DNA from: Acidobacteriaceae bacterium
GTDB lineage: Bacteria; Acidobacteriota; Terriglobia; Terriglobales; Acidobacteriaceae
NCBI GenBank assembly: GCA_030041515.1
Contig: JASHNS010000030.1
Span: 1 to 64,000 of the forward strand
Reading direction: 5' to 3'
Length of the DNA: 64,000 nucleotides
The notes below the pieces were generated by a model. It saw only the letters and a program-made list of their open reading frames with translations, had not been told where the DNA came from and did no database searches. Below, in pieces: positions 7,366-51,602 of the stretch. The first letter of the stretch is position 1. The number at the start of each line of letters is the position of its first letter. The position numbers were made by a program, and so were the translations under genes.

Positions 7366-7411
7366 GCGCTGTGCGCCCGCTACCCGTAGATTCGGTTGCA
7401 GGAGATCCCTT

Positions 7412-8131: not shown

Positions 8132-8194
8132 GGCTTTCAGCTGAAGTTGAAGACTCTGGCGGAAGCCTGGAGAATGAGTTTGGAGGTTCTCAGT

Positions 8195-8740: not shown

Positions 8741-9185
8741 GGTGTGGTCAAGGCCTATATCACTCCGTGGCGTTTTACGACTATTGCACCTGACTGGGAG
8801 GCGCAATCGAATCATTACGCAAGGCTTATTCTGCGGCGGGTGAAAGGTCCCGATAAACGGACTTGTCGCCAACGATCAGCCCTGGTCGTTCTCGCTTTGC
8901 GCATCATCGCCAAATCGCTCATCGGTTCGATAACCATCGGGAACAGGAAATCGGCTGCATTTCAGATTTCGGGCTGTGCGGCTAGTGCGAGCCATCTCCC
9001 GGGTGCAGTTTAGAACGGTCGGCGAACAGGCCCATTGGAGTGGTGTTATGTCTGGAAGGCGGCCGGAACTGTGGGGCCGCAAACCCACGATTTGCGGCCC
9101 ACAAGGTACCTGCCGTGTAGGCGAAACCAGGATCGCCCATTGCCAGACTCCGCAGCAAGCTTCCTATAGCCGGCGCGTTCACCCT
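8741..9185. other. Intergenic region with one strong hairpin, no gene seen
   Basis: About 445 bases between the hemerythrin gene and the convergent GNAT gene. The short open frames here have no domain signature or ribosome-binding site. The only structure I find is the inverted repeat at 9071-9102. Confidence 0.5.
9071..9102. repeat. Long inverted repeat downstream of the GNAT gene
   Basis: GTGGGGCCGCAAA and TTTGCGGCCCAC form a 12-pair stem with one bulged G and a seven-base loop, 84 bases past the GNAT stop on the minus strand. There is no U-run. It could be a factor-dependent terminator or mRNA stabiliser for convergent transcripts. Confidence 0.5.
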
Positions 9186-10067
9186 TCAGTACAAGATTGA
9201 GGGCAGCCAGGCCCCCTGCGGCTCCATGTATAAGCCGATCATCATCAGGGTATTCAGGTGCTGGGCTCGCAACCCATGATTCAGACACCAGCTGAAGACT
9301 TCATGGTTGCGCACCGGCACCATGAATCCTGTCCCTTCGAAAGACGGAGCCTGGGCCAACATCGCGATCAGGTCGCGGTTGTTTTCCGCCACCGTATGGC
9401 CGAAGTAGTGCAGCCCGGTGGAGTAGCCAACCAGCCTGCCGTCATATTCGGCGACGGTCACGCCATCGTGCGCGATCGCGTCCGCCAACTCGCCGGAGCG
9501 CTTGTGCCCATGCACCCGAAAGCAGAGCGCATCGCACGCGGCGGCGTCCGACGGCGTTGCCTTACGGAAGGAATATCCCGGCATCGTCTTTTGTATCGAC
9601 GGGCCTTGCAGGCGAACGACCGTTTCTCGCTCAATGAACCCGAGCTTTGTGTAGAGCGACAACGAACGCATGTGATACCCCGCCTGCAGCAGCCGACAGC
9701 CAGAGAACCCCTGCTCGTTTGAACGCGCGACCACGGCTTCCATTAACTTCCGGCCCACACCCGCATTCTGGAGCTTCGGATCAACTGTGATGGGACCCAC
9801 GCCGCTGAGCGGGCCGCGCTCGTCAAGGCAGTTGCTCCCGACGATGCGCCCATTCTGTTCTGCCACGACGCAATAGAATTTCGGGTGCGAAAACAGCATT
9901 GTCATCAGGCCAATCACCACTTGCGGATCGGGAGGCATCTCACGCGGTGCGTGGTATTGGTCGGCAATCGTGTTGAAGGCGTCCAGGCAGATTGGACCGC
10001 AGGTCGCAGCGTCCTCAGTTCTGGCTCGACGAATCTCAACGGCGCTAGCTGCGGCAACGGTGGACAT
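9186..10067 (-). CDS. Tandem GNAT-domain acetyltransferase
   Basis: A 293-residue protein built of two GNAT-like domains. The first (about 10-155) has a full acetyl-CoA signature: VGPITVDPKLQNAGVGRKLMEAVV, followed by the AGYHMRSLSLYTKLGF C-terminal strand-helix. The second (about 165-290) is degenerate, with VAEYDGRLVGYSTGL and late FMVPVRNHEVFSWCLNHGLR but no clear Q/R-x-x-G-x-G/A loop. It probably serves substrate binding. The substrate is unknown; amines, peptides or small antimetabolites are all possible. GGAGGA lies just upstream of the ATG. The gene is followed by a long inverted repeat and shows no functional link to its neighbours. Confidence 0.85.
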   Translation of the reverse strand: MSTVAAASAVEIRRARTEDAATCGPICLDAFNTIADQYHAPREMPPDPQVVIGLMTMLFSHPKFYCVVAEQNGRIVGSNCLDERGPLSGVGPITVDPKLQNAGVGRKLMEAVVARSNEQGFSGCRLLQAGYHMRSLSLYTKLGFIERETVVRLQGPSIQKTMPGYSFRKATPSDAAACDALCFRVHGHKRSGELADAIAHDGVTVAEYDGRLVGYSTGLHYFGHTVAENNRDLIAMLAQAPSFEGTGFMVPVRNHEVFSWCLNHGLRAQHLNTLMMIGLYMEPQGAWLPSILY

Positions 10068-10187
10068 ATAGATGTTCCTCCGGGAAACGCCCCATCGTAG
10101 GCAGCCGCTCGATGTCTGTCAAACGGCTATCGCTGGCTTCGTCAGGTCTCGCCCGCATTCCTGGAAGCCTGTGCGATAGCCCGGAAG

Positions 10188-38850: not shown

Positions 38851-40167
38851 CTACCCCTGTGGACTGGCGTTACCAGGCTGCGGTGGCGCGGTCACGGTTT
38901 CCGGCTTCGCAGGAACGGCAGCCGCAGCTGTGGATTTTCTGCGCGCGTCTGCAGCGCTCTTGCGTTCCTGTTCCTCTTTCGCCTTCTCCTCTGCCGCCTC
39001 GGCATCGGTGACGTAGCGAAACTCCTGCACGCGCCCAGGATACTGTTCGGTTGTAAACACGCGGTTCTGTTTGTCGATCGCAACGCCGACCAGGGCGCTG
39101 AACTGACCCGGCAGGTTCCCGTGGCCCCATCCGATATACGTGAGCAACTGGCCCTCGCTATTAAAGACCTGGAGCCGGTCCTGCATTTCATCCGCCACCC
39201 AGATGTGGCCGTCGCCGTCGATGGCGATGCCTTTGGGACGAGCAAAATAACCGGGACCGTCGCCGGGCTTGCCGAAGGTGCTCATGAAGTTTCCATCCGC
39301 ATCGAAAATCTCCACGCGATCATTCAGCGTGTCGGTCACATAGACGTTCCCGTCCTTATCGACCGCTACGCCCTGGGGCGCTGCGAAATCCCCGGGCGAG
39401 GTTAGAAAGTGATTCTTGCCGCCCGTACCCATGCGGCGGAGCAATTTGTAAGTGTCCGCATCGAAAACGAGAACCTGGTCCTGCTGTGTGTCGGCAACGT
39501 AGAGGAAGCGATTCTCGGTGTCGATGGCCAGCCCGACCGGATCGACCAGGCCTTCAGTCACCTGGCCCGTGAGCTGGTGTTGAGGACTGAAGACGAGTAC
39601 CCGGTGCATTTTGCCGTCTGCGACGAACAGCCGGTCGTCGTCGTCGATGGCGAGGCCGTTGATCCAGCCGAAATGGGCTTCAAACCCGTTGCGGATGAGT
39701 TGCGTGTCGTGCGTCTTCGGATCGAAGATGAAGACCGCGCCGACCTTCTGATCGGCGACATACAGCAGGCCTTTTGAATCCACAGCAATGCCGAACGGCC
39801 CGACCAGCTGAAACGGATATTTCTTCAGGTTGGTCTTGTCCGCATCCGGTTGGCTGCCGGCCAGGCGGTCCATCCAGCTGGCCTTGTGTTTTGCGGCCGC
39901 GTATTGCGAGTAGTCGATTTTCTCTCCGGCAAAGTAGTCGGCCCAGCGGACGCGCGCAATATTGGGCGGACTGGGCCACACCAGCTTCGTGGGGTCAAAA
40001 GGAAAGTTATGGGGTCCCGCAGCCGGTTGCGTCGTGGTGCTGGCGGTTTTCTTTTTCCGTGCAGCGCGAGCCACAGAGGACGCAGTCAAAATCGTGAGAA
40101 ACAGCAGGAGGAGCGCCAGCGCGGGCCGGGTTCGGATTGGAAGGGTGGGGATCATCGGTTGCTCCAT
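38851..40167 (-). CDS. Secreted NHL-repeat beta-propeller protein A
   Basis: A 438-residue protein with a signal peptide (ALALLLLFLTILTASSVARA) and at least five NHL-type repeats, recognisable as GPFGIAVDSKGLLYVAD, PVGLAIDTENRFLYVAD, PQGVAVDKDGNVYVTD, PKGIAIDGDGHIWVAD and LVGVAIDKQNRVFTTE. The C-terminus is a low-complexity Lys/Glu/Ala/Pro tail. NHL propellers scaffold other proteins. It directly follows the 16-haem cytochrome gene without a gap and has a paralogue beside the 12-haem cytochrome (44676-45836). This pairing of one propeller with each large cytochrome suggests a structural partnership. The start at 40167 abuts the upstream stop; an ATG 12 bases later is an alternative. Confidence 0.9.
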   Translation of the reverse strand: MEQPMIPTLPIRTRPALALLLLFLTILTASSVARAARKKKTASTTTQPAAGPHNFPFDPTKLVWPSPPNIARVRWADYFAGEKIDYSQYAAAKHKASWMDRLAGSQPDADKTNLKKYPFQLVGPFGIAVDSKGLLYVADQKVGAVFIFDPKTHDTQLIRNGFEAHFGWINGLAIDDDDRLFVADGKMHRVLVFSPQHQLTGQVTEGLVDPVGLAIDTENRFLYVADTQQDQVLVFDADTYKLLRRMGTGGKNHFLTSPGDFAAPQGVAVDKDGNVYVTDTLNDRVEIFDADGNFMSTFGKPGDGPGYFARPKGIAIDGDGHIWVADEMQDRLQVFNSEGQLLTYIGWGHGNLPGQFSALVGVAIDKQNRVFTTEQYPGRVQEFRYVTDAEAAEEKAKEEQERKSAADARRKSTAAAAVPAKPETVTAPPQPGNASPQG

Positions 40168-41688
40168 TCAGTTCCCTGGTACCACCGTGTCGTTCATGTT
40201 CATGCGGTTCTTGTGGCATATGTCGCAGAACTGCATGTTGTCGGCCTGATCCTTGACCAGCAGATCGGACTGCGCCGAAGCGTGCGGCTGATGACACGAG
40301 AGGCAGCTGAGCGGCGTTTTCACCTGACCCACATGCGTCGGGTCCATCACGTCGGAGACGGGATGTCCATCCACAGGGTGCCCCAGGCCGTAGCGCAGGG
40401 GCAGAATCGGGACCTTATTCACCCGGTAATAGTTTGCGGGCAGCGTGATTGCGCCGTTAAAGATGGCCAGCGTTCCATCAGCCTGCTTCTGCGGGACGGA
40501 ATCCGGCCCGTGGCACTCGAGGCATAGAGCGTTTCCCCGCGCGCGCAGCAGATGATCGTTGTCGCCGCCGTGGGGCGTATGACAGGTGCCGCAACCCAGT
40601 CCGAACGCCGGCTGGTGATGATACGACTTTTTCTGAAGGTCGGCAATATCGCTGTGGCAGCCAAGGCAGATGCTCACGCCGTCCGTTTTCGGCAGTCCCG
40701 GCTCACTGCTGGCGTGCGGGCTGTGGCAGTCCGTGCAGTCGCCCATTGCGCCGGGATGCTGCACTCTGGCCGACTGGATCAGCTTATCTTTGTCGCCATG
40801 ACAGGTGATGCAGAGGGATCGGACGTCAGCCTGGGTCAGAACCACTTTCCCGTCCTTCGGCGCGGAATGGCACGTGTCGCATGCGCCGGCCGCGAACGGT
40901 GGGTGCGTGAACTTCGCCATCAGATGAGGCGCGGCCGACTGATGTGGGTCATGGCACTCCAGGCAATTCGCGGTTGCGAAGGGCTGGTTGTTATGCGCCT
41001 TCTGAAGATCCGGATCTTTGGGGTCGTGGCAGTCGAGGCACAGCGCTGGCGCCGATTTCGTCAGGTGGAATCGGTTCTCCGCCGTAGGCTCCGCACCGGA
41101 TTTGTGAACCGTGTGACATGTGTCGCAGCCCATGTCCAGCGCCGCATGGCGGCTGCCGCCTGTGGGAACGTGCAGCCCGGTCTGATGACACTGCAGGCAG
41201 AGATTGCTCTTCTCGTCGCCGGATGTGGGCTTGAGCAGTTGGTTCTTGTTATCGCTGGAATGGGGATCGTGGCAAACCAGGCAATCGCGAACCGCAGGGG
41301 GATGCACCGTGCCCTGAATGTGCGCTGCGTCTTTATCCGCGTGACAACTGAGGCACAGCGATCGCGGCGTGGCCGTGATGAGCTTCACGCGCGTGATATC
41401 GCGGTTGACACGGATTTCGTGACACGCAAGACAGCCCATGGCCATGGCAGAGTGGACGGCCTTGCCCTTTGCCTTGTCGCCATGACACTCCAGGCATTTC
41501 TCCGGGGGTGTGTTCTTGTCGAGCGGGACGGGATGAATGTCGGCAAAGATGGGTGCTGCGAAAAGGGTAAGAGCGGCAAGCGCCAAGCCGGTCCGGCATC
41601 GCCTGCCCTGACCCGCGCGGAAGGAGTCGGCACCCGCCAGACTGCGGGATGCAGCGGCCAATCTCTTCACCATCATCTCCAGTTCCAT
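40168..41688 (-). CDS. Sixteen-haem c-type cytochrome
   Basis: A 506-residue exported protein (signal TGLALAALTLFAAPIFA) with sixteen CXXCH haem c motifs, spaced about 25-35 residues apart and often followed by D-P-H, S-P-H or D-K. Many belong to paired CXXCH (doubled-CXXCH) units like those in decahaem and outer-membrane cytochromes. Each haem probably has bis-His ligation, given the abundant histidines such as HPP, HPG and HHQP. It should carry electrons across the periplasm or outer membrane. A Crp-like dyad lies 65 bases upstream, in the gap shared with a divergent tetrahaem gene. Confidence 0.92.
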   Translation of the reverse strand: MELEMMVKRLAAASRSLAGADSFRAGQGRRCRTGLALAALTLFAAPIFADIHPVPLDKNTPPEKCLECHGDKAKGKAVHSAMAMGCLACHEIRVNRDITRVKLITATPRSLCLSCHADKDAAHIQGTVHPPAVRDCLVCHDPHSSDNKNQLLKPTSGDEKSNLCLQCHQTGLHVPTGGSRHAALDMGCDTCHTVHKSGAEPTAENRFHLTKSAPALCLDCHDPKDPDLQKAHNNQPFATANCLECHDPHQSAAPHLMAKFTHPPFAAGACDTCHSAPKDGKVVLTQADVRSLCITCHGDKDKLIQSARVQHPGAMGDCTDCHSPHASSEPGLPKTDGVSICLGCHSDIADLQKKSYHHQPAFGLGCGTCHTPHGGDNDHLLRARGNALCLECHGPDSVPQKQADGTLAIFNGAITLPANYYRVNKVPILPLRYGLGHPVDGHPVSDVMDPTHVGQVKTPLSCLSCHQPHASAQSDLLVKDQADNMQFCDICHKNRMNMNDTVVPGN

Positions 41689-41752
41689 CGCAACCCCGGT
41701 CCGCGTGCAGGTTTCCCAGGAGAAATTACAATCGCCGGGAAAGAGCTATGGC

Positions 41753-41768
41753 TGTGAGATAAATCACT
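41753..41768. promoter_or_regulatory. Crp-like dyad between two divergent cytochrome genes
   Basis: TGTGA-GATAAA-TCACT lies 65 bases upstream of the 16-haem gene and 127 bases upstream of the tetrahaem gene. It closely matches the dyad at 47701-47716 and the Crp consensus, so it could control both directions. Confidence 0.55.
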
Positions 41769-41894
41769 CCCCACGCGGTGAAATGACGGGTTTCGCCCAT
41801 CGCCTGTCGCGAGGCGGCACAGTCCGGGCCGCAGGTTGAAGTGACCCCAACATCGCGCCGATGAGCAGCGCAGGCACAGGGAGGCCCGGCGGCG

Positions 41895-42758
41895 GTGACT
41901 CGGCGCGTACATCTCATCCTTTTTCTTTTCAGCGCTTCGGCAATGGCGGGAGCGCAGATCGTTTCTCCAGCGACGGATGTTTTGGGCGCCCACCTGAATT
42001 ACGGGCGAGGCTGTACCGCCTGCCACGCGCCGCACAGCGGGGCCAACGGCAACGGCATGGCCAGAACGGCAGATCCAGGCTCGGGGAGTGTGGCCTTGTG
42101 GGGTGAGGATGCTTCCGCTCTCTACGGCAAAACGATGGTCACGGGCGGCGGCAGCTACGTGGAGGTCCTGCCGACCAGCATGTCCGCCGGAACCCCGGAT
42201 GTTGAAGGCATCATGACCTGCCTGAGTTGTCACGACGGCAACTACGCCTCCCAGGCCATGATGAAGAACCGGCTCTACGAATCGCTCCCAGGTACCTACG
42301 GCAGCGCCAACCAGGTTCCCACGCTCATCGGAACTGCCGCCGGCGGTGCCACGAGCTACCTGAGCGAGCATCCCGTTGGTCTCAGCGCATCGCTCAGTTG
42401 CGGAGGCAGTGCGTGGGACTGCAGCGAGGCTGGTGGCGTTATCACCATGAAAGGCCCCAACTCCAGCCGGTTCGTGAACAACTACGGCTTCTTTGTCAAG
42501 CCTGCCAGCTATAACAATGCCGCCGTGGTGATGTGCACCACCTGTCACGACCCGCACGACATGAGCGTCGTCACCATCTCCACAGGCTCGACGTCGGGGC
42601 TGCCGCCTGGAACTTATGCCACGATGTTCTTTCTCCGCGGTCCGTACAATCCCAACGACCCGAATCCACAGTCGAACCAGACAGCGCAGTTTTGTCGGCA
42701 ATGTCATGCGGACTTGTCCAATGAAATGAATGGAAGCACGGCGCGCACCATCTTCTGA
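41895..42758 (+). CDS. Tetrahaem c-type cytochrome, paralogue 1
   Basis: A 287-residue exported cytochrome with signal peptide (HLILFLFSASAMAGAQ) and four CXXCH sites: CTACHAPHSG, CLSCHDGNYA, CTTCHDPHD and CRQCH near the C-terminus. The intervening text (DVLGAHLNYGRG, ALWGEDASALYGKT, SEHPVGLSASLSCGG, NSSRFVNNYGFFVKPA, TMFFLRGPYNP) is shared almost line by line with the paralogue at 48865-49803. An N-terminal C-x-x-C-H-A/T-P-H, a central C-L-S-C-H-D-G and an H-P-V-G motif are what I recall in OmcE-like filament-forming tetrahaem cytochromes. The GTG start has GGGAGG ten bases upstream. It faces the 12-haem gene with only one base between stops. Confidence 0.9.
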   Translation: MTRRVHLILFLFSASAMAGAQIVSPATDVLGAHLNYGRGCTACHAPHSGANGNGMARTADPGSGSVALWGEDASALYGKTMVTGGGSYVEVLPTSMSAGTPDVEGIMTCLSCHDGNYASQAMMKNRLYESLPGTYGSANQVPTLIGTAAGGATSYLSEHPVGLSASLSCGGSAWDCSEAGGVITMKGPNSSRFVNNYGFFVKPASYNNAAVVMCTTCHDPHDMSVVTISTGSTSGLPPGTYATMFFLRGPYNPNDPNPQSNQTAQFCRQCHADLSNEMNGSTARTIF

Positions 42759-42759
42759 G

Positions 42760-44679
42760 TCACCTCCGGATGGGACTGCGGCGAATGCGCATCGCGGCCG
42801 CGGTTACCGTGCCGTCAGGGTTGTGATCGTAGCCGTGGCAGCTGAGCGTGCAGGTGTTGGAGGCGTGGTTATACGCGATCGGCTGGCCTCCATTCGGAGC
42901 CACGACATTCACATCGAAGTTCACCAGGCGTTCACCGCCGATGGTGCCGCTCACCGCTCCCATTCCGTGCGCCGTGTGGCACACGGAGCAGCTGAACCCC
43001 GCATTGATGTGAAGGCTATGCTGATTGAAGCTCGTGTTCGCGAGGATTTGTGATAGGTCGTGGCACTTCGCGCACAGCGCATACGGTCCATTCACGCTCG
43101 TGTCGGGATTGGGAAACAGATTCGTGATGAGGGCGCCCGGCGTCGGCGCCTGGCTGAACTCGTAACGCCGCTCCAGAATATGCGTCCACTTCGAACCATG
43201 GGGTCCGTTCGCGCCGGTTCCGCCGAATTCCCGATTGTCGTCGCTGTTATGGCAGTCGGTGCAGAAGATCTGTGTTCCCATCGCGCGCCCCTGCGTCGCC
43301 CCGTCCAGGTCCAGCATGTAGGTGCGCAGGCTGGGTTGCGGCCAGGGGCTCGACCTCGGGTGCATCACGGGATGGCTCGACAGCCTTGCCGCCGCCGCCG
43401 AGAATTGCGGAATCAGATTCAGCGGATCGCCTGCCGCGACGGCACGTACCGGCGCATAGCCATAGATCGCCAGCGTCTGCTTGCCGGAGCTCGCCCCATG
43501 GCAACGCAGGCAAATCTCATACTGATTCACCGCGGGCGTAAGCACCGTTGTGCCGTTCGTCGCGCTGATGCCGACAGCATCTTTCTCTGAGACGCGAAGC
43601 AGTGGCGCCGACGTAAAGCTTCCTACCGGTTGCGAACCGTGCGGGCTGTGACAATCAACGCAGGTGGCGTGCCGATTGTTATTCAGCAGTGCCGGCTCAT
43701 TGGCGTCATGCGGGTTCGCGGAGCTGGGGAACGGGTGCCCGACCTTGCCCGAAGCGTATTCGGCAAAGACGTCTTCCCAGGTCGGCATCGGTGAAACGTT
43801 CGCGCCATTGTGGCAACCGATGCAATCCTGCTCGTTCTGCGCGCGCAGGATTCGTTGGGGCGAGCTGGCATTGTGCGGCGTGTGGCAGGCGATACAGGCG
43901 TTGGCTCCAACGGTCGCGTAGCTGCCCAGCTGGGTCTGCGCGACGGCATTGGCCGCCGCTATTTTCGCGACGGACAGCGCATGCGCGCTCGTTGCCCAGT
44001 CCACCAGCGGATTCGGATGTCCCGACATCGTCCGGGTCGGATCGTGGCAGGCGAGGCAGAGCTGGCCGGAGGAACTGTCCTTCACGAGGAAGTTCTGCGA
44101 AACCAGATCCTTCGCCTGAACGTGCGGATTATGGCAGGACGTGCACTCCACGTTGCCCTGAACCAGATGCACCGCACCCGTCGTATCTGCGGTCTTCCCG
44201 CTGGACACCAGCGTGGACACAAGATCCACTGTGTCCTTGAGCGGGAGCACCAGGCTGAAGGGGTGCGACGACTGCAGCGTGCTGCCGAAGACATCCTGCG
44301 CATACATCGACCCTTGCGTAGTCACCTGCCCGTACACCACGGTGTCGCCAATGGCCACCGTGCCATCATGGCAACTCAGGCAGTGATTGCTGACAGAATT
44401 GAGCAGCGGCTGCCGTCCGGTGTTGGCTTCCGTCGTGCTGCTGTAGGTGGTGTACGTCTGTGTGGTGAGCTTTTGGTTCCACAGGCCGACATTCAGGCCC
44501 GAGTGCGGCGCATGGCAGTAAGCGCAGGCATCCGGCCGCGCTCCTTTGATGGGCGACGGCCCTCCCGGCCCGAGGTAATGCGCCCCCATCGCGTCGCCAC
44601 CAACCTGCGCGCGCAGCCCGGAGCCGGACAACAGCGCTGCTGCGATCGCCAGCCCCGCCAGCATGCCTCTCGCTCTCAC
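42760..44679 (-). CDS. Twelve-haem c-type cytochrome with one CX3CH site
   Basis: A 639-residue exported cytochrome with eleven CXXCH motifs (CAYCHAPH, CLSCHDGT, CTSCHNPH, CLACHDPT, CIACHTPH, CIGCHNGA, CVDCHSPH, CLRCHGAS, CTDCHNSD, CAKCHDLS, CSVCHTAH). A final CTLSCHGYDH has three residues between the cysteines. The N-terminal half shows the WNQKLTT / NHCLSCHDGT / SHPFSLVLP / VECTSCHNPH pattern of filament-type or outer-surface cytochromes. The GTG start at 44679 has GGAG seven bases upstream and overlaps the stop of the upstream NHL gene in GTGA, so the two are translationally coupled. It likely hands electrons to or from the beta-barrel conduit encoded upstream. Confidence 0.9.
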   Translation of the reverse strand: MRARGMLAGLAIAAALLSGSGLRAQVGGDAMGAHYLGPGGPSPIKGARPDACAYCHAPHSGLNVGLWNQKLTTQTYTTYSSTTEANTGRQPLLNSVSNHCLSCHDGTVAIGDTVVYGQVTTQGSMYAQDVFGSTLQSSHPFSLVLPLKDTVDLVSTLVSSGKTADTTGAVHLVQGNVECTSCHNPHVQAKDLVSQNFLVKDSSSGQLCLACHDPTRTMSGHPNPLVDWATSAHALSVAKIAAANAVAQTQLGSYATVGANACIACHTPHNASSPQRILRAQNEQDCIGCHNGANVSPMPTWEDVFAEYASGKVGHPFPSSANPHDANEPALLNNNRHATCVDCHSPHGSQPVGSFTSAPLLRVSEKDAVGISATNGTTVLTPAVNQYEICLRCHGASSGKQTLAIYGYAPVRAVAAGDPLNLIPQFSAAAARLSSHPVMHPRSSPWPQPSLRTYMLDLDGATQGRAMGTQIFCTDCHNSDDNREFGGTGANGPHGSKWTHILERRYEFSQAPTPGALITNLFPNPDTSVNGPYALCAKCHDLSQILANTSFNQHSLHINAGFSCSVCHTAHGMGAVSGTIGGERLVNFDVNVVAPNGGQPIAYNHASNTCTLSCHGYDHNPDGTVTAAAMRIRRSPIRR

Positions 44680-45836
44680 TGCGCTTCTCCCGCCACCGTC
44701 CGCTTTTGCAGCGAGGCGGTCTTCAATCCCGCGTACCGGAAGACCTGCACGCGGCGGTTGAACGAATCCACGACAAACACCTGGTCGCTTCGATCGATGT
44801 ACAGTCCTGCAGGAAGCTGGAACTGGCCGGCGTGCGTTCCATTGCCGCCGAACCAATACAGCAGTTGCCCCTGACGGTTAAAGACCTGGACCACACCCCA
44901 CTCGTCGTCCACGACATAAAGATCGCCTTCGGAATCCATCGCTACCGCCTTCGGACGGAACATCGCGCCGATGCTGTCGCCGATTTGTCCAACGGCATAC
45001 TCAAACTTTCCCGAAAGGTCGAAAGCCTGAACGCGAAAATTCAGTGCGTCGACTACCAGCAGGGTGTCACCCTCCAGCCGCAACTCAGTGGGATAGTTAA
45101 ATTCACCCGGCAGTCCTCCTCTCTGCCCGAAGCTGCTCAGCACGGTTCCGCGCATATCCAGGATGTAAACCCGGAAACGCAGCGTGTCTGTGACATAAAT
45201 CCGCCCGGCTGCGGAGTCGACGGCGATGCCGGTCGGCCTCTTGAACCAGCCCTCCCCGCCCTTCAGTGCGCCGATTGCGCGCATGAACCTGCCGTTGGGC
45301 GAGAAAACGAAAATCACTCCTGCAAGCGAATCGGTGACGTAAATGTTGTCCTCGGCGTCCACCGCGATGCACTGCGGCGCCGTCATCGAGAAGGTCCGCC
45401 CGAGCCGCTGAACAAACTTGTACTTGTGCTTTTGGAAATCGAAGATATGCACGCCGGCCGCGCCCGGATCGGTCACCAGAATCCGTCCACGCGAATCGGT
45501 GACTACGCTGTACGGACGCACCATGCCGCGATAATCCGGCATACCGGCCACGAAATCCCACACCTTATTCCAGAATCCCCGGTTCGGCTTCACGTCGGCC
45601 TGCGAGCTGAAGCTGCGCTCCCAGGTCAGGCTCCGGCCGCTGGCAAGCGAGATCTGCCAGTATTCCGGCTGCGCCGTCCTGTGCTTTTGGGCCGCCACCA
45701 TCGAAGAGCAAAGCGTGCAAACCAGGACGAGCATTTGCACGCGCCGACCGCGCCCCGCGCCCAGCGATCGCCATCCCCCTGCGTCCGCACGCCGGAGGCT
45801 CCTCTGCCTGGTTTCGCTCAGAAGATGTTGAACCAT
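44676..45836 (-). CDS. Secreted NHL-repeat beta-propeller protein B
   Basis: A 386-residue protein with a hydrophobic segment near residue 40 (VQMLVLVCTLCSSMVAAQ) and NHL repeats such as RPYSVVTDSRGRILVTD, APQCIAVDAEDNIYVTD, RPTGIAVDSAAGRIYVTD, RPKAVAMDSEGDLYVVD and LPAGLYIDRSDQVFVVD. It is a paralogue of the propeller at 38851-40167, including the last-repeat motif RRVQVFRY. The ATG at 45836 overlaps the preceding barrel gene by 19 bases; a later start near the hydrophobic segment would give a normal-length signal peptide, so the start is uncertain. It is coupled to the 12-haem cytochrome by a GTGA overlap. Confidence 0.85.
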   Translation of the reverse strand: MVQHLLSETRQRSLRRADAGGWRSLGAGRGRRVQMLVLVCTLCSSMVAAQKHRTAQPEYWQISLASGRSLTWERSFSSQADVKPNRGFWNKVWDFVAGMPDYRGMVRPYSVVTDSRGRILVTDPGAAGVHIFDFQKHKYKFVQRLGRTFSMTAPQCIAVDAEDNIYVTDSLAGVIFVFSPNGRFMRAIGALKGGEGWFKRPTGIAVDSAAGRIYVTDTLRFRVYILDMRGTVLSSFGQRGGLPGEFNYPTELRLEGDTLLVVDALNFRVQAFDLSGKFEYAVGQIGDSIGAMFRPKAVAMDSEGDLYVVDDEWGVVQVFNRQGQLLYWFGGNGTHAGQFQLPAGLYIDRSDQVFVVDSFNRRVQVFRYAGLKTASLQKRTVAGEAQ

Positions 45837-47653
45837 CGCGAAACCCCGAAGTAATACGACCCAATCATCTGCGCTGGCATACCGGACCCGCTGAATCCCT
45901 GAACGAGTCGTGCGTATCCGCTGTTCCACGAGAGCTTCCGTGTCTGATACTGAATCAGCGCTGTAAATTCGTTGTTGCTGTTCGACGATGTGATACCTTC
46001 GCTCGACACGTCGCTGTCCGACCTGGCATACGCTGCCGTGAGGATCAGATTTTTCACCGGCGTGCTGGACAAGGCGGCCGAGTAGCTCTTGCCGCCGTAC
46101 AGGCTGAAGAGGGTCGACGGCAAAATCGGCGGAGGAATGGGCGAAGTCGTCAGCCCGCCGCCGGTGAGCAGCGCCTGCCCGTCGGCCTTTGTATATCCGC
46201 CATTGGCGTTGATCCACCTGCCGTAACCCACGCCCGCGTCGTAACTCTGGCTGTCACTCTGATCGCCCGCCTGTTGAGTGAGCGCGGTGCGCCCCCCACC
46301 CGCTCCCATATCCACATTGAACTTACCCCAGTTCCGGCGCACGTTGACGTTGTAGTTGTAATAAGAATTCATGTAGGTCACTACCAGCGTTTCCGCGTTT
46401 TGCGCGTAGCCGAACGTTCCGCTGGTATGCCACCCGCCAATCACGCGAGAATAACTTGCGTTTGCTGAAACTCCCAGGTTGTTCTCGTTGTCCTGGTCGC
46501 CCATATTCTCCGTCAGGCTCGCCGCGCCATTGAAGGTGCCGCCCAACAGGGCTCGCATGTACGAAGCCCCCGCCGTGTACGAATCGACCGTATAGCTTTC
46601 GCCCAGGAAGGTCTGGCTGCGACGCTCCCAGGAGGCCTGAGCTTCCAGGTGCTCGCTCGCGGCGTAGCCGGCCTCAGTCATCACATCGAGGGAATCCGAC
46701 TTTTCGTTGGATGTGGACGGCACAGCACCGCCTGCGGCTACGATCGCCTCCACCAGTTGCCCGGTTAGATTGTCGGAGTAATTCAGGCTGGCAGTCAGCG
46801 AAAGCCTCTGGGTGGGATGCAGTGTGGCCAGGGCACTCGTCAAGTCGACGGTGCCGCTGGATGTGGAGCCCAGAAATGTCGTGCTGTAGTTTGAGTGGTT
46901 GATGCCCGCCGATGCGGAACCAGACAAAGGCAGGACATGCGAGAGATTAAAGCCGTATGCCCCGCTCGTTGAACTCGTCTCGGCCGATTGCTCTCCGGCG
47001 AGGACCGCGGGAATCATGGAATTGGAGGTTCCATGGTTGTAGAAGGCTCCCATCCCAAAGCCGTCCAGGTTGTAACCGGAGTGCAGATTGAGAGAGTCGA
47101 AGTTATTCGTTCCCTCTTCGTCAATCCCGTAAACGCTGTAGTTGCTGCTGCCGCTCTGCCAGCCCGCGGAGAAGGACGGCATGCTCGGGAGCTCTTCGCT
47201 CCAGTTGATGCCGAAGGTGTTGCTGTTGCCGTCCGTGACGTAATTGGCAAGACCCGGGATATCGTAGTTGCCCTCGCGGTTGTAAGCCTTCGACCATGTC
47301 ACCGAACCGGGAAAGTGGCTGCCTCCGAAGATTTCGCTGCTGAAATCCAGTCCACTCGCGTTCGAGATGGACTGGAAGCTGGAGTTGGCGCGCGACTGGT
47401 TGATATAGAACGACGCATCGTAGGAGAGGAAGTTAGGACTGTAATAGTCGCCGGACAATGTTCCCGCGCCGCCGAACGCCCAGGTGTGATCGGAACCGGT
47501 CTGGTTGCCGAAATCTGCGGAATACCCCGGCGAGATCACGCCGCTCAGCTTCGTGCTGAAATTCCCCACCTGAAGCTGCGCGATGCCCTGCGGGTGAACG
47601 AGCGCCAGCGCGCTCGCCGCTACCACTCCCGCAACTCGCTGCCACATCGCCAC
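45818..47653 (-). CDS. Outer-membrane beta-barrel, putative porin of a cytochrome conduit
   Basis: A 611-residue protein with signal peptide (VAASALALVHPQGIAQ). Long runs of alternating polar/aromatic strands follow (LSYDASFYINQSRA, SLTASLNYSDNLTG, YNYNVNVRRNWGKF), and the chain ends in FGVSRWFNIF. The terminal phenylalanine is the usual signal for outer-membrane barrel assembly. Its size would allow 20 or more strands, comparable with MtrB/PioB-type porins that sheath a multihaem cytochrome. No CXXCH is present. Located between a prolyl isomerase and an NHL/cytochrome pair, it is the best candidate for the outer-membrane pore. A Crp-like dyad lies 48 bases upstream, so it may have its own promoter. 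Confidence 0.82.
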   Translation of the reverse strand: MAMWQRVAGVVAASALALVHPQGIAQLQVGNFSTKLSGVISPGYSADFGNQTGSDHTWAFGGAGTLSGDYYSPNFLSYDASFYINQSRANSSFQSISNASGLDFSSEIFGGSHFPGSVTWSKAYNREGNYDIPGLANYVTDGNSNTFGINWSEELPSMPSFSAGWQSGSSNYSVYGIDEEGTNNFDSLNLHSGYNLDGFGMGAFYNHGTSNSMIPAVLAGEQSAETSSTSGAYGFNLSHVLPLSGSASAGINHSNYSTTFLGSTSSGTVDLTSALATLHPTQRLSLTASLNYSDNLTGQLVEAIVAAGGAVPSTSNEKSDSLDVMTEAGYAASEHLEAQASWERRSQTFLGESYTVDSYTAGASYMRALLGGTFNGAASLTENMGDQDNENNLGVSANASYSRVIGGWHTSGTFGYAQNAETLVVTYMNSYYNYNVNVRRNWGKFNVDMGAGGGRTALTQQAGDQSDSQSYDAGVGYGRWINANGGYTKADGQALLTGGGLTTSPIPPPILPSTLFSLYGGKSYSAALSSTPVKNLILTAAYARSDSDVSSEGITSSNSNNEFTALIQYQTRKLSWNSGYARLVQGFSGSGMPAQMIGSYYFGVSRWFNIF

Positions 47654-47700
47654 TGCAGATCGTCCTTTAATCCAGCCTCTCCGCTGCGACGCTCGAAATC

Positions 47701-47716
47701 TGTGATTGGAATCACT
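47701..47716. promoter_or_regulatory. Crp-like dyad upstream of the beta-barrel gene
   Basis: TGTGA-TTGGAA-TCACT lies 48 bases before the barrel gene, in the 141-base gap after the isomerase gene. The half-sites are identical to those at 41753-41768, which supports a real operator. Confidence 0.55.
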
Positions 47717-47794
47717 CTGCGTCGAATCGTATCTGGGTTTGTCTTTGTCTCCTCCGGCCCGGTCTACAGCTCACTTCCGGCGGATTGCGCCCCC

Positions 47795-48784
47795 TCAGAA
47801 CTCCTCTACCCTCGCGTTCTGCCGCAGCTTCTTGTCCAGCGCCGCCCGCAGAGCGTTTCTTTTTTTCTCGTACAGTTCTTTACGGAGCGGAACCTCAACT
47901 TCCTGGAACGTCGCCTCGCCCGCCGGCGTGTGCGCCCCGAGGCGCACAATCGTGAATGCCTGCTGGACCTCGATTAGCCCGCTCATCTGTCCCGCCCGCA
48001 TGCCCCGCAAAGCCTGCAGCACCGGTGGAACAAGCTGATCGACGGGAACGGGCCGGTGTTGGCCCATCACCACGCGATAGTCATCGTCAGAGATCTTCTC
48101 TGCCAGCAATCCGAAATCCTCCGCCGTCTTTGTCGCTTTCGCCTGGCGCAGGGCGTCTTCGGCGCGCTTGCGCTCTTCGGCCAGTTGCGCGGCCGTCGGA
48201 TGAGTGGGCGGGAGGATGGAGATGGTCTGAAATGTATAAGACTCAGGGTGATGAAACCGTGCCGGATTCTTCAGGTAATACGCTCGTGCATCCGCGAGCG
48301 AAACCGCGCTGCGGCTGTCGACTTCCATCCTGAGAAAGCGGTCGATGAGCAGCGAGCGGCGAATCTTCGCGCGCAGCAGCTCGCGCGAGCCGTGAAATTC
48401 GGTTGCCACAAAGGCGTTGTACTCGTCCGGTGAAGAGAAGCTCGCGCGAAAGTCCGCTTCGGCTTTAGCCATCGTGGCCGGCGCAATGGTCATGTGCCGC
48501 CGCTGCGCCTCCTGGAAAACCAGTTCCTCGAAGACCATCATCTTCATCGCGCCGTCGCGGATCTGCGCTTCCATTTCCTTCGGTAGCCCGCCGTGCTGCC
48601 GCGCATACGGGAAGATCGCATATTCCTCGCGAGCGAGATCGGCGTTGGTGAGCACGACGCCGTTGACCCGCGCCGCCGGCTGATCCTGCTGGACCTGAGT
48701 GGGAGCGTGCGAGGCCACCTGAGCTCTTCCCGATACAACAACGGCGAGCAATAAAATTCCACAAGTTGAGATTTTCTGTTTCAT
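47795..48784 (-). CDS. PpiC/SurA-type periplasmic peptidyl-prolyl isomerase
   Basis: A 329-residue exported protein (signal CGILLLAVVVSGRAQ). An N-terminal SurA-like helical part contains ARVNGVVLTNADLAREEY and long helices to about 180. A parvulin-like domain (about 195-310) follows, with FHHPESYTFQTISI, ALRQAKATKTAEDFGLLAEKISDD, and GMRAGQMSGLIEVQQAFTIVRL. It likely chaperones the barrel or the cytochromes in the periplasm. The ATG at 48784 is supported by AGGA seven bases upstream. It lies just past a strong terminator, so its expression depends on read-through from the tetrahaem gene or on a promoter I cannot see. Confidence 0.87.
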   Translation of the reverse strand: MKQKISTCGILLLAVVVSGRAQVASHAPTQVQQDQPAARVNGVVLTNADLAREEYAIFPYARQHGGLPKEMEAQIRDGAMKMMVFEELVFQEAQRRHMTIAPATMAKAEADFRASFSSPDEYNAFVATEFHGSRELLRAKIRRSLLIDRFLRMEVDSRSAVSLADARAYYLKNPARFHHPESYTFQTISILPPTHPTAAQLAEERKRAEDALRQAKATKTAEDFGLLAEKISDDDYRVVMGQHRPVPVDQLVPPVLQALRGMRAGQMSGLIEVQQAFTIVRLGAHTPAGEATFQEVEVPLRKELYEKKRNALRAALDKKLRQNARVEEF

Positions 48785-48803
48785 GGGGAAATCCTGGGGT
48801 TTG

Positions 48804-48838
48804 AAAAAATGGGGAGGGGAAATCCGTGGCCCCTCCCC
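48804..48838 (-). terminator. Intrinsic terminator between the tetrahaem gene and the isomerase gene
   Basis: On the minus strand, GGGGAGGGG and CCCCTCCCC form a perfect nine-pair stem with a ten-base loop, followed by ATTTTTTC. It lies 27 bases past the tetrahaem stop and 20 bases before the isomerase start. This is the clearest rho-independent terminator in the window. Confidence 0.88.
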
Positions 48839-48864
48839 TGTGATTACTTCGAAAGACTGCTCAG

Positions 48865-49803
48865 TTAGAACGTCGTTCCGGCGGTGCTGCCGTTGGACTC
48901 GTTGGCCTCGCCTCCATGGCATTGGCGGCAGAACTGCGCCGTCTGGTTGCTGCCCTGCGTTGTGCTGGCCGGGTTATACGGCCCACGCAGGAAGAACATG
49001 GTGGCGTAGTTGCCCGTCGGCAGTCCCGACTGACCGGTGCAGGTCGTGGCTCCATTCGTGGTGGTGCAATTCCAGTTGTCCGTCACGCTGACAATGTTCA
49101 TCACGTGCTGGTTGTGGCAGGTGGTGCACACCACAACGGGCTGGCTGTTATACACTCCGGGGCTGACAAAGAAACCGTAGTCCGTGACGAAACGGCTGGA
49201 ATTCGGACCGTTCATCAGGACCGAGCCCGTCGCGCTGATCGAGCAGTCCCAATTGTGTCCGCCGCCGCAACCGATCACTGCATTCAGTCCCACCGGGTGA
49301 TCGTTCAGGTAGTTCCCCGCACCGGTATTGTCATTGCCGAGCAGCGTCGGAATGGTGTTGTTAGTCCCGTAGGTCGGAGGCAGGCTCTCGTAGACCTTGT
49401 TCTTCATCATGGCGCCTTCGGCATAGTTGCCATCATGGCAGCTCAGGCAGGTGAGCAGCCCAGCGACATCGGGCGTGGTACCGCTCAGACTGCTGGGCAA
49501 CGTCTCGGTGAACGTTGAACCCGGCGCGGAACCTTCGGCCGCCATCTGGCCGGTGATGATGGTCTTGCCGTACAGGCTGCCGACATCCTGGCCCCACAGA
49601 GCGACGTTTCCGGCAGTGGCGTCGAAGCCCTTCTGCGCGCCGTTCCCGTATGCGCCGCTGTGAGGCGCGTGGCAGGCCGCGCAGCCGCGGCCATAGTTGA
49701 GGTGAGCGCCGAGAACATCGTTCGGCGTGGTGCCAATCATCTGGGCTGACGCGAGGCTCGCGACCCCCAGGAACATGAGTGGAAGTAGAAGTTTGTGCTT
49801 CAT
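48865..49803 (-). CDS. Tetrahaem c-type cytochrome, paralogue 2
   Basis: A 312-residue exported cytochrome (signal LLLPLMFLGVASLASAQ) with four CXXCH sites: CAACHAPHSG, CLSCHDGNYA, CTTCHNQH and CRQCHGGE. It is strongly similar to the product of 41895-42758 over its length (DVLGAHLNYGRG, LYGKTIITG, NDHPVGLNAVIGCGGG, GPNSSRFVTDYGFFVSPG, YATMFFLRGPYNP). It has extra loops, including a cysteine pair in NWNCTTTNGATTCTGQ that could form a disulfide. A strong terminator right after it and a long structured leader before it suggest high, separately controlled expression, as for a filament subunit. That is inference. Confidence 0.9.
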   Translation of the reverse strand: MKHKLLLPLMFLGVASLASAQMIGTTPNDVLGAHLNYGRGCAACHAPHSGAYGNGAQKGFDATAGNVALWGQDVGSLYGKTIITGQMAAEGSAPGSTFTETLPSSLSGTTPDVAGLLTCLSCHDGNYAEGAMMKNKVYESLPPTYGTNNTIPTLLGNDNTGAGNYLNDHPVGLNAVIGCGGGHNWDCSISATGSVLMNGPNSSRFVTDYGFFVSPGVYNSQPVVVCTTCHNQHVMNIVSVTDNWNCTTTNGATTCTGQSGLPTGNYATMFFLRGPYNPASTTQGSNQTAQFCRQCHGGEANESNGSTAGTTF

Positions 49804-49985
49804 GAAATAAGCCTCCTGCTACGCGTGTTGTTCGGCTGAACCCGAACACCGATCCTGCGGGTTGAGGTTGAGAGTCCAGTCCTGAGGAACAAAGTCTGCG
49901 CCTCGCAGCGGTGGTTGCCGCAGATCTGGAACCGGTGGCGTCTGACGGATCGAGCGATCAACGGTAAAAAGACAAACGATAAGCT

Positions 49986-50013
49986 CGTTCAGCAGCACGT
50001 TTCCTGCTGAACG
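49986..50013. repeat. Perfect hairpin in the leader region of the tetrahaem gene
   Basis: CGTTCAGCAG and CTGCTGAACG form a ten-pair stem with an eight-base loop about 180 bases upstream of the tetrahaem start. It could be a regulatory RNA structure or a protein-binding inverted repeat. Confidence 0.5.
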
Positions 50014-50188
50014 CGTGGCCGCCAGACAGGGGGAGGGGGGCGCCCCGGCGAGCCCAGCCGGGAGTTCCTGAAACAGGGACCGGGCTCCAAATTGGGAACT
50101 CCGGTCGCTCTGTGCGTGGAATACTCTTGACATTCAGCTGGCTTTCCTGGGCCGGTTATCATGCGACCATTTCCTGCATCCTGCCGGA

Positions 50189-50204
50189 TGTGACTGTCGT
50201 CACG
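50189..50204. promoter_or_regulatory. Crp/Fnr-like dyad upstream of the TPR genes
   Basis: TGTGA-CTGTCG-TCACG, with the palindrome GTGAC-TGTC-GTCAC inside it, lies 78 bases upstream of the first TPR gene. It keeps the GTGAC-N4-GTC core of the NO-island dyads. Confidence 0.5.
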
Positions 50205-50281
50205 GGACTTTGTGATGACTGCCACCGCGCTCTGAGGGCCTCTTGCCTCTACTGTGAACATGGCGGGGTGAACGATCCGCG

Positions 50282-50977
50282 ATGCCGACCCAATCAGCCC
50301 GGAAGCCCGCACCAGTGCTCATGTTTCGTGCGCGAGCCGTGTATACGGTCGCGTTCCTGGCGCTGCTTCTGGGGTTAGCTGCCGGCTACGGCACCCATTC
50401 GCGGCGGCCGTCCGATTCTGCGACACCGGCTCAGGTTTCGGCCGCCCCGGTCGAAGCTACGGCCCCGCAAAGCCCCGCTCCTGCGACTCTCAAACAGATG
50501 GCCGACCAACAGGCGGCTCCCCTGATGGCGAAGCTCAAAACCGACCCCAATAACCCAGACCTGATGCTGCAGTTGGGAGCAATTTATTTCGTCGCTCGGC
50601 AATATCAGGACGCGAGCGGCTGGTACACCAGGGCCGTCGAAGCCGATCCGCGCAATGTGGCCTCGCGCAACAAGCTCGCCGGCAGCCTCTTCCGCGCAGG
50701 CCAGTCGGATGCCGCGATCCAGCAACTGAAGGCCGCGTTGCGCATCGAGCCCACCGATCCCGATTCTCTCTACAACCTGGGCATGATCGATTTGAGCGGC
50801 AAGGGCGATGTGCGGGGAGCGCTGTCCGCCTGGCAAAGCCTTCTCCAGACCAACCCTCGACTCAGCGAGGACCGCAAAGCCGCAGTCCTTCAGCTGATCA
50901 CGAACACGATGAACTTTGTCAACGACCCTCATCAGCTGGAAGGAGGACGCCGGCATGCCAAAGCCCAGGCGGAATAG
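50282..50977 (+). CDS. Membrane-anchored TPR protein 1
   Basis: A 231-residue protein with an N-terminal helix (YTVAFLALLLGLAAGYG, about 21-37), a Pro/Ala-rich linker, and three TPR-like helical pairs: DPNNPDLMLQLGAIYFVARQ, DPRNVASRNKLAGSLFRAGQ and EPTDPDSLYNLGMIDLSGKG. The layout resembles the NrfG/CcmI-type TPR proteins that help attach haem to cytochromes. Next to a locus with 36 haem sites that role is attractive but unproven. It overlaps the next gene, a clear paralogue, by 23 bases. The start lacks a strong ribosome-binding site. Confidence 0.82.
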   Translation: MPTQSARKPAPVLMFRARAVYTVAFLALLLGLAAGYGTHSRRPSDSATPAQVSAAPVEATAPQSPAPATLKQMADQQAAPLMAKLKTDPNNPDLMLQLGAIYFVARQYQDASGWYTRAVEADPRNVASRNKLAGSLFRAGQSDAAIQQLKAALRIEPTDPDSLYNLGMIDLSGKGDVRGALSAWQSLLQTNPRLSEDRKAAVLQLITNTMNFVNDPHQLEGGRRHAKAQAE

Positions 50978-51602
50978 CTGCTGGACCCTCTATCAGGCAA
51001 TGACCCTCATCGGCGTCTGCCTCGTCGCGGGCACCGCCGGAGGCTGGCTGATCCGCAGCGGCTGGACGCCGAGCGCCTCAGCAGCGCAGACAGGCGATGC
51101 CGCGCTTCAACCTGCGCCCTTCCCTTCGCAACCTCTCGACCCCGCGCGGATGAAGACCGTGGCAGATGCGCAAGCGGCACCGCTTCTGAAGCAACTGCAG
51201 GCGGATCCGGGCAATGCCGACGTGCTGACAAGCCTCGGAAATCTCTACTACGACGCGCAGCAGTTTTCGGTGGCGGTGGATGACTACGCGCGCGCGCTCG
51301 AGGCGCATCCCTCTGACGCCGCGGTGCGGACTGATATGGCCACCGCCTACTGGTATCTGGGACAGACCGACCGCGCGCTGGCTGAGTTTGACAAAGCGCT
51401 CGTTTACCAGCCCAACTATCCCAACGCCCTGTTCAACCGTGGCGTGGTCCGCTGGCAGGGCAAAGGCGACAACGCAGGCGCATTGTCGGACTGGAGACAA
51501 CTCCTCGCAACCAATCCCGGCTACCAGGCCCGCGAGCAGGTGGAGAAGCTCATGGCCCGCGTGCAGAACGATGCCGGAGCAACAACTCAGACCTCACGCT
51601 AA
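50955..51602 (+). CDS. Membrane-anchored TPR protein 2
   Basis: A 215-residue paralogue of the preceding protein: N-terminal helix (MTLIGVCLVAGTAGGWLI), linker with DPARMKTVADAQAAPLLKQLQADPG, and TPR pairs ADVLTSLGNLYYDAQQ, SDAAVRTDMATAYWYLGQ and YPNALFNRGVVRWQGKGDN. Both proteins share the DxQAAPLxxxLxxDPxN motif before the first repeat. AGGAGG lies eight bases before the ATG. The tandem pair probably forms a complex, perhaps in cytochrome c maturation. Confidence 0.84.
   Translation: MPKPRRNSCWTLYQAMTLIGVCLVAGTAGGWLIRSGWTPSASAAQTGDAALQPAPFPSQPLDPARMKTVADAQAAPLLKQLQADPGNADVLTSLGNLYYDAQQFSVAVDDYARALEAHPSDAAVRTDMATAYWYLGQTDRALAEFDKALVYQPNYPNALFNRGVVRWQGKGDNAGALSDWRQLLATNPGYQAREQVEKLMARVQNDAGATTQTSR

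What the first reader, a model, noticed from the sequence alone, without database searches (positions are those of the whole stretch)
38851..51602. Candidate extracellular electron-transfer or cytochrome-filament locus
Four exported cytochromes (16, 12, 4 and 4 haem sites), an outer-membrane barrel ending in Phe, two NHL propellers, a PpiC isomerase and two NrfG-like TPR proteins are clustered. As I recall, Geobacter filament-cytochrome loci also combine NHL and PpiC genes. The two tetrahaem paralogues have an OmcE-like motif order. The set suggests electron exchange with metals, humics or partner cells.
Basis: partly seen in the sequence, partly recalled or inferred. Interest (0 to 1): 0.72.

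Follow-up and report, generated by a model that had tools for sequence, protein, structure and literature searches.

The report
Acidobacterial cytochrome-nanowire and conduit gene cluster
A soil acidobacterium carries a conserved gene set that looks like a kit for making a protein wire of the kind known from Geobacter and connecting it through the outer membrane; it includes a protein in which a wire-like unit is fused to a second electron-carrying part, a possible plug between wire and cell.

Summary
Window 38851-51602 encodes haem proteins with 16, 12 (11 CXXCH plus one CX3CH), 4 and 4 sites, two NHL propellers, a PpiC isomerase, a barrel ending in Phe and two TPR proteins. Barrel and tetrahaem occur in the same 15 of 81 related genomes. 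The usual order is cyt16-NHL-tetrahaem-PpiC-barrel-NHL-cyt12; the window is a rearranged version with a second tetrahaem. In more distant Acidobacteriota the tetrahaem slot holds proteins matching the OmcE filament subunit (PDB 7TFS) at E 1.7e-51, and the match survives masking of every haem motif and histidine. The first four haems of cyt12 are also OmcE-like (E 1e-22), fused to an eight-haem module. The barrel is predicted as a 28-strand pore; MtrB is its top solved match, by a small margin. The 16-haem protein resembles MtrA. Most likely this is an OmcE-type nanowire with its own porin-cytochrome conduit. For the window's own tetrahaem the link to OmcE is indirect: a direct match is weak and its fold prediction failed. 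Related clusters with isomerase and propeller are published for Desulfobacterota, so this is a new variant. The fused cyt12, a possible wire base, is the most interesting part.

The parts
38851..40167 (-). NHL beta-propeller 1 (438 aa), exported
   Evidence: PF01436 1.3e-31; pairs with the 16-haem gene in relatives
40168..41688 (-). 16-haem MtrA/DmsE-like cytochrome, predicted periplasmic side of the conduit
   Evidence: 16 CXXCH; 6r2q_A of the Mtr complex 3.5e-17; TIGR03508 170.4 bits, below the 192.2 cut-off; 17 distal-His candidate columns for 16 haems in 49 rows
41895..42758 (+). second tetrahaem cytochrome (tetB), opposite strand, 60% identical to tetD
   Evidence: 4 CXXCH; alignment A1; a tetB-type gene is mapped in 18 of 67 named loci
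42760..44664 (-). 12-haem cytochrome (cyt12): OmcE-like tetrahaem domain (haems 1-4) fused to an 8-haem module; ORF runs to 44856, likely start 44664
   Evidence: N-domain to OmcE 7TFS 9.5e-23 and 9YUQ 3.3e-17; 11 CXXCH + CX3CH; start
44676..45734 (-). NHL beta-propeller 2; ORF runs to 46217, likely start 45734
   Evidence: PF01436 3.6e-21; start
45818..47653 (-). outer-membrane barrel, predicted 28 strands, C-terminal Phe
   Evidence: AF2 pLDDT 80.1, pTM 0.67; top PDB match MtrB 6r2q_B by Foldseek 5.4e-10 and by VIA Z 14.9, rmsd 8.5, 427 residues, tied with the next row Z 14.1
47795..48784 (-). SurA/PpiC-type peptidyl-prolyl isomerase; ORF runs to 48922, likely start 48784
   Evidence: PF13145 8.2e-14; start
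48865..49803 (-). tetrahaem cytochrome (tetD), candidate filament subunit of the OmcE superfamily
   Evidence: 4 CXXCH + 4 invariant distal His in 83 of 83 rows; 9YUQ 1.3e-6; hhalign to OmcE-slot profile 99.4%
50282..50977 (+). TPR protein 1 with N-terminal hydrophobic anchor (by eye), possible apocytochrome maturation helper
   Evidence: PF23914 CcmH/CycH TPR 7.6e-10, below cut-off; a TPR gene is mapped near in 31 of 67 loci
50955..51602 (+). TPR protein 2 (ORF from 50916, likely start 50955)
   Evidence: TPR models; NrfG model 2.3e-4, below cut-off

Best explanation
The locus makes and wires an extracellular cytochrome filament of the OmcE superfamily. Inferred path: the 16-haem MtrA-like protein carries electrons across the periplasm and into the MtrB-like barrel; the 12-haem protein takes them up at the outer face; its OmcE-like domain meets a filament of tetrahaem subunits that reaches minerals, humics or partner cells. 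PpiC would chaperone the haem proteins, the NHL propellers would help secretion, folding or docking, and the TPR pair may help haem loading. Shown by computation: homologies, His order, gene linkage, conservation across the phylum. Inferred: polymerisation, location, electron direction, helper roles.
For: Barrel and tetrahaem occur in the same 15 of 81 genomes (1.2e-16 if genomes were independent, which ignores kinship). The five-gene core tet-PpiC-barrel-NHL-cyt12 is contiguous in 56 of 67 named loci. Full-length cyt12 matches lie in 27 of 396 Acidobacteriota genomes. Of 20 further loci (18 genomes, 17 of them outside the family), 18 carry a standalone OmcE-like tetrahaem in the slot; in the other 2 the contig ends before it. 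The slot profile matches OmcE 7TFS at 1.7e-51 and 9YUQ at 3.9e-43; with all CXXCH and His masked, OmcE still scores 1.9e-21 and 9YUQ 1.6e-14, while reversed OmcE scores 5.8 bits. The slot barrel (17 of 18 loci aligned) is homologous to the window's, 99.5%, 2.3e-23. cyt12 N-domain vs OmcE 9.5e-23. Barrel vs MtrB, cyt16 vs MtrA. Conserved distal His are enough in number for bis-His ligation of every haem, as expected for electron wires.
Against: The window's tetrahaem does not match OmcE directly (E 0.22); with CXXCH masked its match to 9YUQ falls to 3.8 bits. The link runs through profile comparison, which weakens on masking: to slot proteins 95.5% over 49 columns with CXXCH masked and 89.1% with all His masked too; to cyt12-N 96.1% over 135 columns and 93.1%; plus synteny and His order. 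Its fold model is poor (pLDDT 69.3) and matched nothing useful in the PDB. The tree puts the family's tetrahaems on a long branch whose place is unsure, next to the family's own cyt12 domains rather than with OmcE, and does not resolve the cyt12 domains as one group. In the VIA comparison MtrB (Z 14.9) is tied with other barrels (14.1 and below). The 16-haem protein is below the DmsE cut-off; a cyt16 gene is missing from the map in 15 of 67 named loci, among them L063, L064 and L111 with long flanks (found elsewhere in the genomes of L063 and L064). PpiC was recognised in only 5 of 20 distant loci. The locus is patchy: 15 of 81 relatives, 3 of 12 genomes of the genus including this one. OmcE-like domains also occur without a full-length cyt12 match.
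Confidence: 0.6

Rival explanations
1. Porin-cytochrome conduit without a filament: 16-haem protein, barrel and 12-haem surface cytochrome exchange electrons with soluble or solid partners, and the tetrahaems are monomeric shuttles.
For: Barrel and MtrA-like parts are present. The window family's tetrahaem has diverged far from OmcE. A predicted periplasmic tetrahaem just downstream of mtrB is reported for Acidobacteriia MtrCAB (PMC8805035, passages).
Against: The same slot holds clear OmcE homologues in 18 more distant loci. All four distal His and the OmcE His order are kept in 83 of 83 rows.
Confidence: 0.26
2. The barrel is mainly a secretion channel for the tetrahaem, as in the OmcS-companion machinery, and electrons leave by another conduit such as the DmsE/barrel cluster elsewhere in the genome.
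For: PpiC, propellers and barrel lie together with the filament-type gene, matching the recalled roles of OscH, OscD and OscEFG; an eight-gene block is linked to OmcS maturation and secretion (PMC12977616, section 6). A second DmsE-type cluster with a barrel-like frame exists on contig C114.
Against: A cytochrome of the 16-haem type is mapped with the core in 52 of 67 named loci and a protein matching its profile lies near in 20 of 20 distant loci; MtrB is the barrel's top solved match.
Confidence: 0.1
3. Another redox role, such as reduction of an extracellular substrate like DMSO by a DmsEF-type system.
For: The 16-haem protein scores with the DmsE model.
Against: None of the ten genes scanned looks like a molybdoenzyme or other terminal reductase; genes further out were not scanned with family models. 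By count, the conserved distal His can fill the sixth ligand of every haem, which leaves no obvious catalytic haem.
Confidence: 0.04

Closest known systems
OmcE nanowire of Geobacter sulfurreducens (PDB 7TFS; identity read in PMC12954529, passages)
   Same: Four haems, four distal His in the same order; slot homologues in more distant Acidobacteriota at 1.7e-51; cyt12 N-domain at 9.5e-23
   Different: The window's tetrahaem (312 aa) is about 80 aa longer than the OmcE chain (232 aa) and too divergent for a direct match; gene neighbours of OmcE itself were not examined
Oet (OetABI) conduit cluster of syntrophic Desulfobacterota (PMC5539420, passages; PMC10553843, passages and section 9)
   Same: A 16-haem cytochrome, six-bladed propeller, peptidyl-prolyl isomerase, outer-membrane barrel and filament-type cytochromes in one cassette
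   Different: No 26-haem cytochrome among the window frames and no lipoprotein signal seen in cyt12; OmcE-type rather than OmcS/OmcX-type subunit; sequence homology of the shared parts not tested
OmcS-companion (osc) assembly cluster, Shen et al. 2025 (paper not held; contents recalled, citation seen in PMC12307469 and PMC12977616)
   Same: Prolyl isomerase, beta-propeller and channel genes beside a filament cytochrome
   Different: OmcE-type subunit; the MtrA-like and fused 12-haem genes belong to the conserved unit
MtrCAB / porin-cytochrome conduits, including Acidobacteriia (PMC8805035, passages) and Holophaga (PMC7399161, passages)
   Same: MtrA-like cytochrome and MtrB-like barrel
   Different: 16 instead of 10 haems; none of the four cytochromes reaches the OmcA/MtrC model's cut-off; the barrel matches no NCBIfam model

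Membership tests
OmcE filament family | Four CXXCH and four distal His in the OmcE order | tested here: met
   Invariant in 83 of 83 tetrahaem rows, 59 of 59 cyt12 N-domains and 19 of 19 slot rows
OmcE filament family | Sequence homology to OmcE beyond haem motifs | tested here: inconclusive
   Met for slot proteins (1.9e-21 with CXXCH and His masked); for cyt12-N 6.2e-7 with CXXCH masked, 0.012 with His masked too; not direct for the window tetrahaem, only by masked profile comparison at 89-96%
OmcE filament family | OmcE fold | tested here: inconclusive
   Haem-less AF2 model pLDDT 69.3, no significant PDB match
OmcE filament family | Polymer with a haem ligated by a His of the next subunit | not testable with these tools
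   No complex modelling or coordinates available
MtrB/PioB porins | Match to a curated porin family model | tested here: not met
   No NCBIfam or Pfam model at 1e-3; no Pfam model at E up to 1
MtrB/PioB porins | Wide barrel of about 26 strands (number for MtrB recalled) resembling MtrB | tested here: met
   28 predicted strands by my count; MtrB first in Foldseek, 5.4e-10 against 5.3e-8; first but tied in VIA
MtrA/DmsE decahaem cytochromes | Ten haems and a score over the family cut-off | tested here: not met
   16 haems; 170.4 bits against cut-off 192.2, though homologous (3.5e-17 to 6r2q_A)
Oet (OetABI) cluster | 26-haem cytochrome and extracellular cytochrome lipoprotein | tested here: not met
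   Largest window frame by haem count has 16; the cyt12 N-terminus from 44664 has no Cys before haem 1 (sequence)
Oet (OetABI) cluster | Sequence homology to OetA, OetB and OetI | not testable with these tools
osc assembly cluster | OscH isomerase, OscD propeller and OscEFG channel (recalled) | not tested
   Sequences not held; only the kinds of gene compared

The most novel reading that the evidence does not exclude
cyt12 is the missing base of a cytochrome nanowire: a wire subunit whose C-terminal end, where the OmcE chain stops after haem 4, continues into an eight-haem module that docks on the MtrB-like barrel, so each wire starts at a conduit and stays electrically joined to the cell. Fused and free OmcE-like versions would have been kept side by side in Acidobacteriota for this reason.
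Probability: 0.3. Interest if true: 0.8.

Novelty: new variant of a known kind. Interest (0 to 1): 0.62.

Why it matters
How cytochrome nanowires are anchored and electrically coupled to the cell is stated as open in a 2025 review (PMC12307469, section 13 and passages). Here a filament-type subunit, a wide barrel, an MtrA-like cytochrome and a protein that joins a wire-like domain to further haems are encoded together and recur together over a phylum that is abundant in soil and peat. If right, it gives a compact, genetically defined system in which the anchoring question can be tested, and adds more Acidobacteriota, among them Occallatibacter savannae strain AB23 (L063), to the likely wire makers.

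Tried and rejected
Fold of the window tetrahaem: AF2 model too weak; Foldseek gave nothing at E 0.001 or better and VIA-align nothing at Z 2; no conclusion drawn. PDB sequence search with the tetrahaem alone and with the barrel profile: no match. An S8 protease next door (36910-38760) was considered as an OzpA-like wire-processing enzyme and dropped: in the 16 stretches searched with it no homologue was printed. In one search my script threw away hits to this protease and to the WD-repeat protein, and BLAST hits under 60 bits, before printing, so the 67 loci do not bear on it. Gene content of the OmcE locus in Geobacter could not be examined: no Geobacter genome was reachable, and the OmcE paper and the 2023 nanowire survey are not held. 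The inner-membrane partner was not settled; a 13-haem protein with a cytochrome-b domain on contig C114 is a candidate only. No held paper describing an OmcE-type conduit locus in Acidobacteriota was seen in the listings of searches (up to 15 rows each); papers outside the open library may exist.

Of the 11 loci without the contiguous core, 8 (L065, L072, L080, L081, L087, L092, L102, L104) look cut by the contig's end; L089 lacks a recognised NHL2, L113 shows only a tetrahaem and an NHL gene, and in L116 my sorting by ORF start puts cyt12 before NHL2. The barrel of L089 was left out of A5. Of 20 distant loci, L166 and L167 were left out of the slot alignment because their contigs end before the slot; L168 was left out of the barrel alignment because its frame ended abnormally, and it gave two tetrahaems to A7. 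Of the 32 genomes, 27 have full-length cyt12 matches and 5 only partial ones. In one search, 55 of 396 genomes have an OmcE-like domain at 1e-20; that profile also hits cyt12 itself, and the threshold differs. The tree used 12 of 58 cyt12 rows and 14 of 81 tetrahaem rows of the named loci (every fifth or sixth), plus the window's; its L168 cyt12 domain was cut at the wrong motifs (extra CXXCH) and is unreliable.
Full report
What is there. The window lies in a 4.77-Mb acidobacterial genome (99.93% complete). Between 38851 and 51602 lie ten genes: NHL1, a 16-haem cytochrome, a tetrahaem on the other strand (tetB), a 12-haem cytochrome (cyt12), NHL2, a barrel, PpiC, a tetrahaem (tetD), and two TPR genes on the other strand. 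The twelfth haem site of cyt12 is CX3CH and is invariant in all 59 rows of its alignment.

Conservation. In 81 genomes (this one and 80 relatives), tetrahaem and barrel were found in the same 15. Gene maps of 16 stretches and of 67 named loci show one unit: cyt16-NHL1-tet-PpiC-barrel-NHL2-cyt12. Of the 67, the five-gene core is contiguous in 56, the seven-gene order in 32, and the window's type of order (cyt16 behind cyt12, with or without tetB between) in 14. Of the 11 without the contiguous core, 8 look cut by the contig's end. A tetB-type gene is mapped in 18, a TPR gene in 31, a cyt16 gene in 52. The record titles name Acidobacteriaceae, Terriglobia, Ca. Sulfotelmatobacter, Ca. Acidiferrum typicum, Terracidiphilus, one Bryobacterales and Occallatibacter savannae AB23. 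In O. savannae the 16-haem gene lies about 740 kb from the core, if contig C1 of the search is the same record as L063.

The phylum. A profile of cyt12 matched 32 of 396 Acidobacteriota genomes at 1e-30, 27 of them over nearly the full length. I mapped 20 of these loci from 18 genomes, 17 outside the window's family and one inside. cyt12 has 11 CXXCH plus one CX3CH in 16 of 20. At least one NHL gene is beside it in 20 of 20, a cytochrome with 5 to 18 haems matching the cyt16 profile is near in 20 of 20, and PpiC was recognised in 5. In 18 of 20 a standalone tetrahaem of 197-278 aa fills the slot; in the other two the contig ends first. In the gap before NHL2 lies a barrel-like frame; 17 of them, aligned, match the window's barrel family at 99.5%, 2.3e-23 over 552 columns.

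The link to OmcE. The slot proteins match OmcE (7TFS) at 1.7e-51, 178 bits, over almost the whole chain; 9YUQ follows with 151 bits and the next cytochrome, 6r2q_A, with 34. With the C, C and H of every CXXCH masked the OmcE match is 9.1e-29; with all His masked too, 1.9e-21. The N-terminal domain of cyt12 matches OmcE at 9.5e-23, 6.2e-7 with CXXCH masked and 0.012 with all His masked. The window family's tetrahaem matches 9YUQ at 1.3e-6 and OmcE only at 0.22, and the 9YUQ match vanishes on masking. Profile against profile it matches the slot proteins and cyt12-N at 99.4% each; with CXXCH masked 95.5% (49 columns) and 96.1% (135 columns); with all His masked 89.1% and 93.1%. So tetD belongs to this superfamily by position, His order and remote homology, not by a direct hit. 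What 9YUQ is was not looked up; its 16 chains of one protein are what a filament model would show.

Free and fused lineages. In a tree of 70 domains, 18 of 19 slot proteins form one well-supported group (98/94) with OmcE and 9YUQ that holds no cyt12 domain. Free and fused versions therefore look long separated. The cyt12 domains do not come out as one group (3 changes; the supported branches force only 1). The tree warns that the window family's tetrahaems, which come out beside the family's cyt12 domains, sit on a long branch whose place is unsure; the root is drawn at the midpoint only. In cyt12 the chain goes on where OmcE ends, just after haem 4, into eight more haems. This is the basis of the 'wire base' idea; it is an inference from the anatomy.

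The conduit. The barrel model (pLDDT 80.1) has 28 strands by my count. MtrB of the Mtr complex is its top solved match by Foldseek (5.4e-10; next 5.3e-8). By VIA-align it is first as well (Z 14.9, rmsd 8.5, 427 residues), but tied with the next rows (14.1 and below). The fold supports but does not prove an MtrB-type pore. The 16-haem protein is homologous to 6r2q_A (3.5e-17; that this chain is MtrA is recalled, the tool's label for it differs, the entry is titled Mtr complex) but falls below the DmsE-family cut-off. Columns with His in at least 90% of rows, haem motifs left out, number 17 for 16 haems in cyt16 (49 rows), 17 for 12 in cyt12 (59 rows), and 4 for 4 in both tetrahaem sets (83 and 19 rows): enough by count for bis-His ligation throughout, as in electron-transfer rather than catalytic proteins.

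Known relatives. In Desulfobacterota the Oet cluster joins a 16-haem and a 26-haem cytochrome, a six-bladed propeller, a peptidyl-prolyl isomerase, a barrel and filament-type cytochromes (PMC5539420, passages; PMC10553843, passages and section 9). An eight-gene block is linked to OmcS maturation and secretion (PMC12977616, section 6); from recall, it includes a prolyl isomerase, a beta-propeller and channel proteins (Shen et al. 2025, not held). Porin-cytochrome conduits are already reported for Acidobacteriota (PMC8805035, PMC7399161 and PMC13264449, passages). A metagenome study noted a 16-haem cytochrome of Koribacter versatilis and found no OmcE, OmcS or OmcZ in its data (PMC3669403, passages). 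New here, as far as the listings of searches show, are the OmcE-type conduit unit of Acidobacteriota and the fused 12-haem protein.

Verdict. Observation confirmed; interpretation supported as a prediction. New variant of a known kind. The fused cyt12 as nanowire base is the boldest reading the evidence allows, probability 0.3.

Noticed in passing
L171 (own genome, contig C114) 236-15538: A second electron-transfer cluster: [NiFe] hydrogenase, a DmsE-family decahaem cytochrome (260.9 bits, over cut-off), a barrel-like frame without a family match, a 13-haem protein with a cytochrome-b domain, an 11-haem protein and an NrfH-like 5-haem protein. It suggests hydrogen oxidation linked to an outer-membrane conduit.
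   Followed up: partly
36910-38760: A subtilase-like protease (S8 by eye, no family scan) with C-terminal LWGKG-type repeats, convergent with the locus; no homologue was printed beside it in 16 related stretches.
   Followed up: partly
L172 (own genome, contig C15) 228-6356: A pentahaem protein beside a 1065-aa and a 517-aa frame, looking like alternative complex III by gene layout (recalled); not tested with family models.
   Followed up: no
L154 (genome G322, same family as the window by kinship label) 2362-10085: This genome of the window's family carries a canonical OmcE-like tetrahaem and a divergent cyt12, so two versions of the unit occur within the family.
   Followed up: partly
nine genomes of family f31: These genomes hold one to four OmcE-like matches each but are not among the genomes with a cyt12 match, so the wire-type subunit also occurs without the fused partner.
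   Followed up: no
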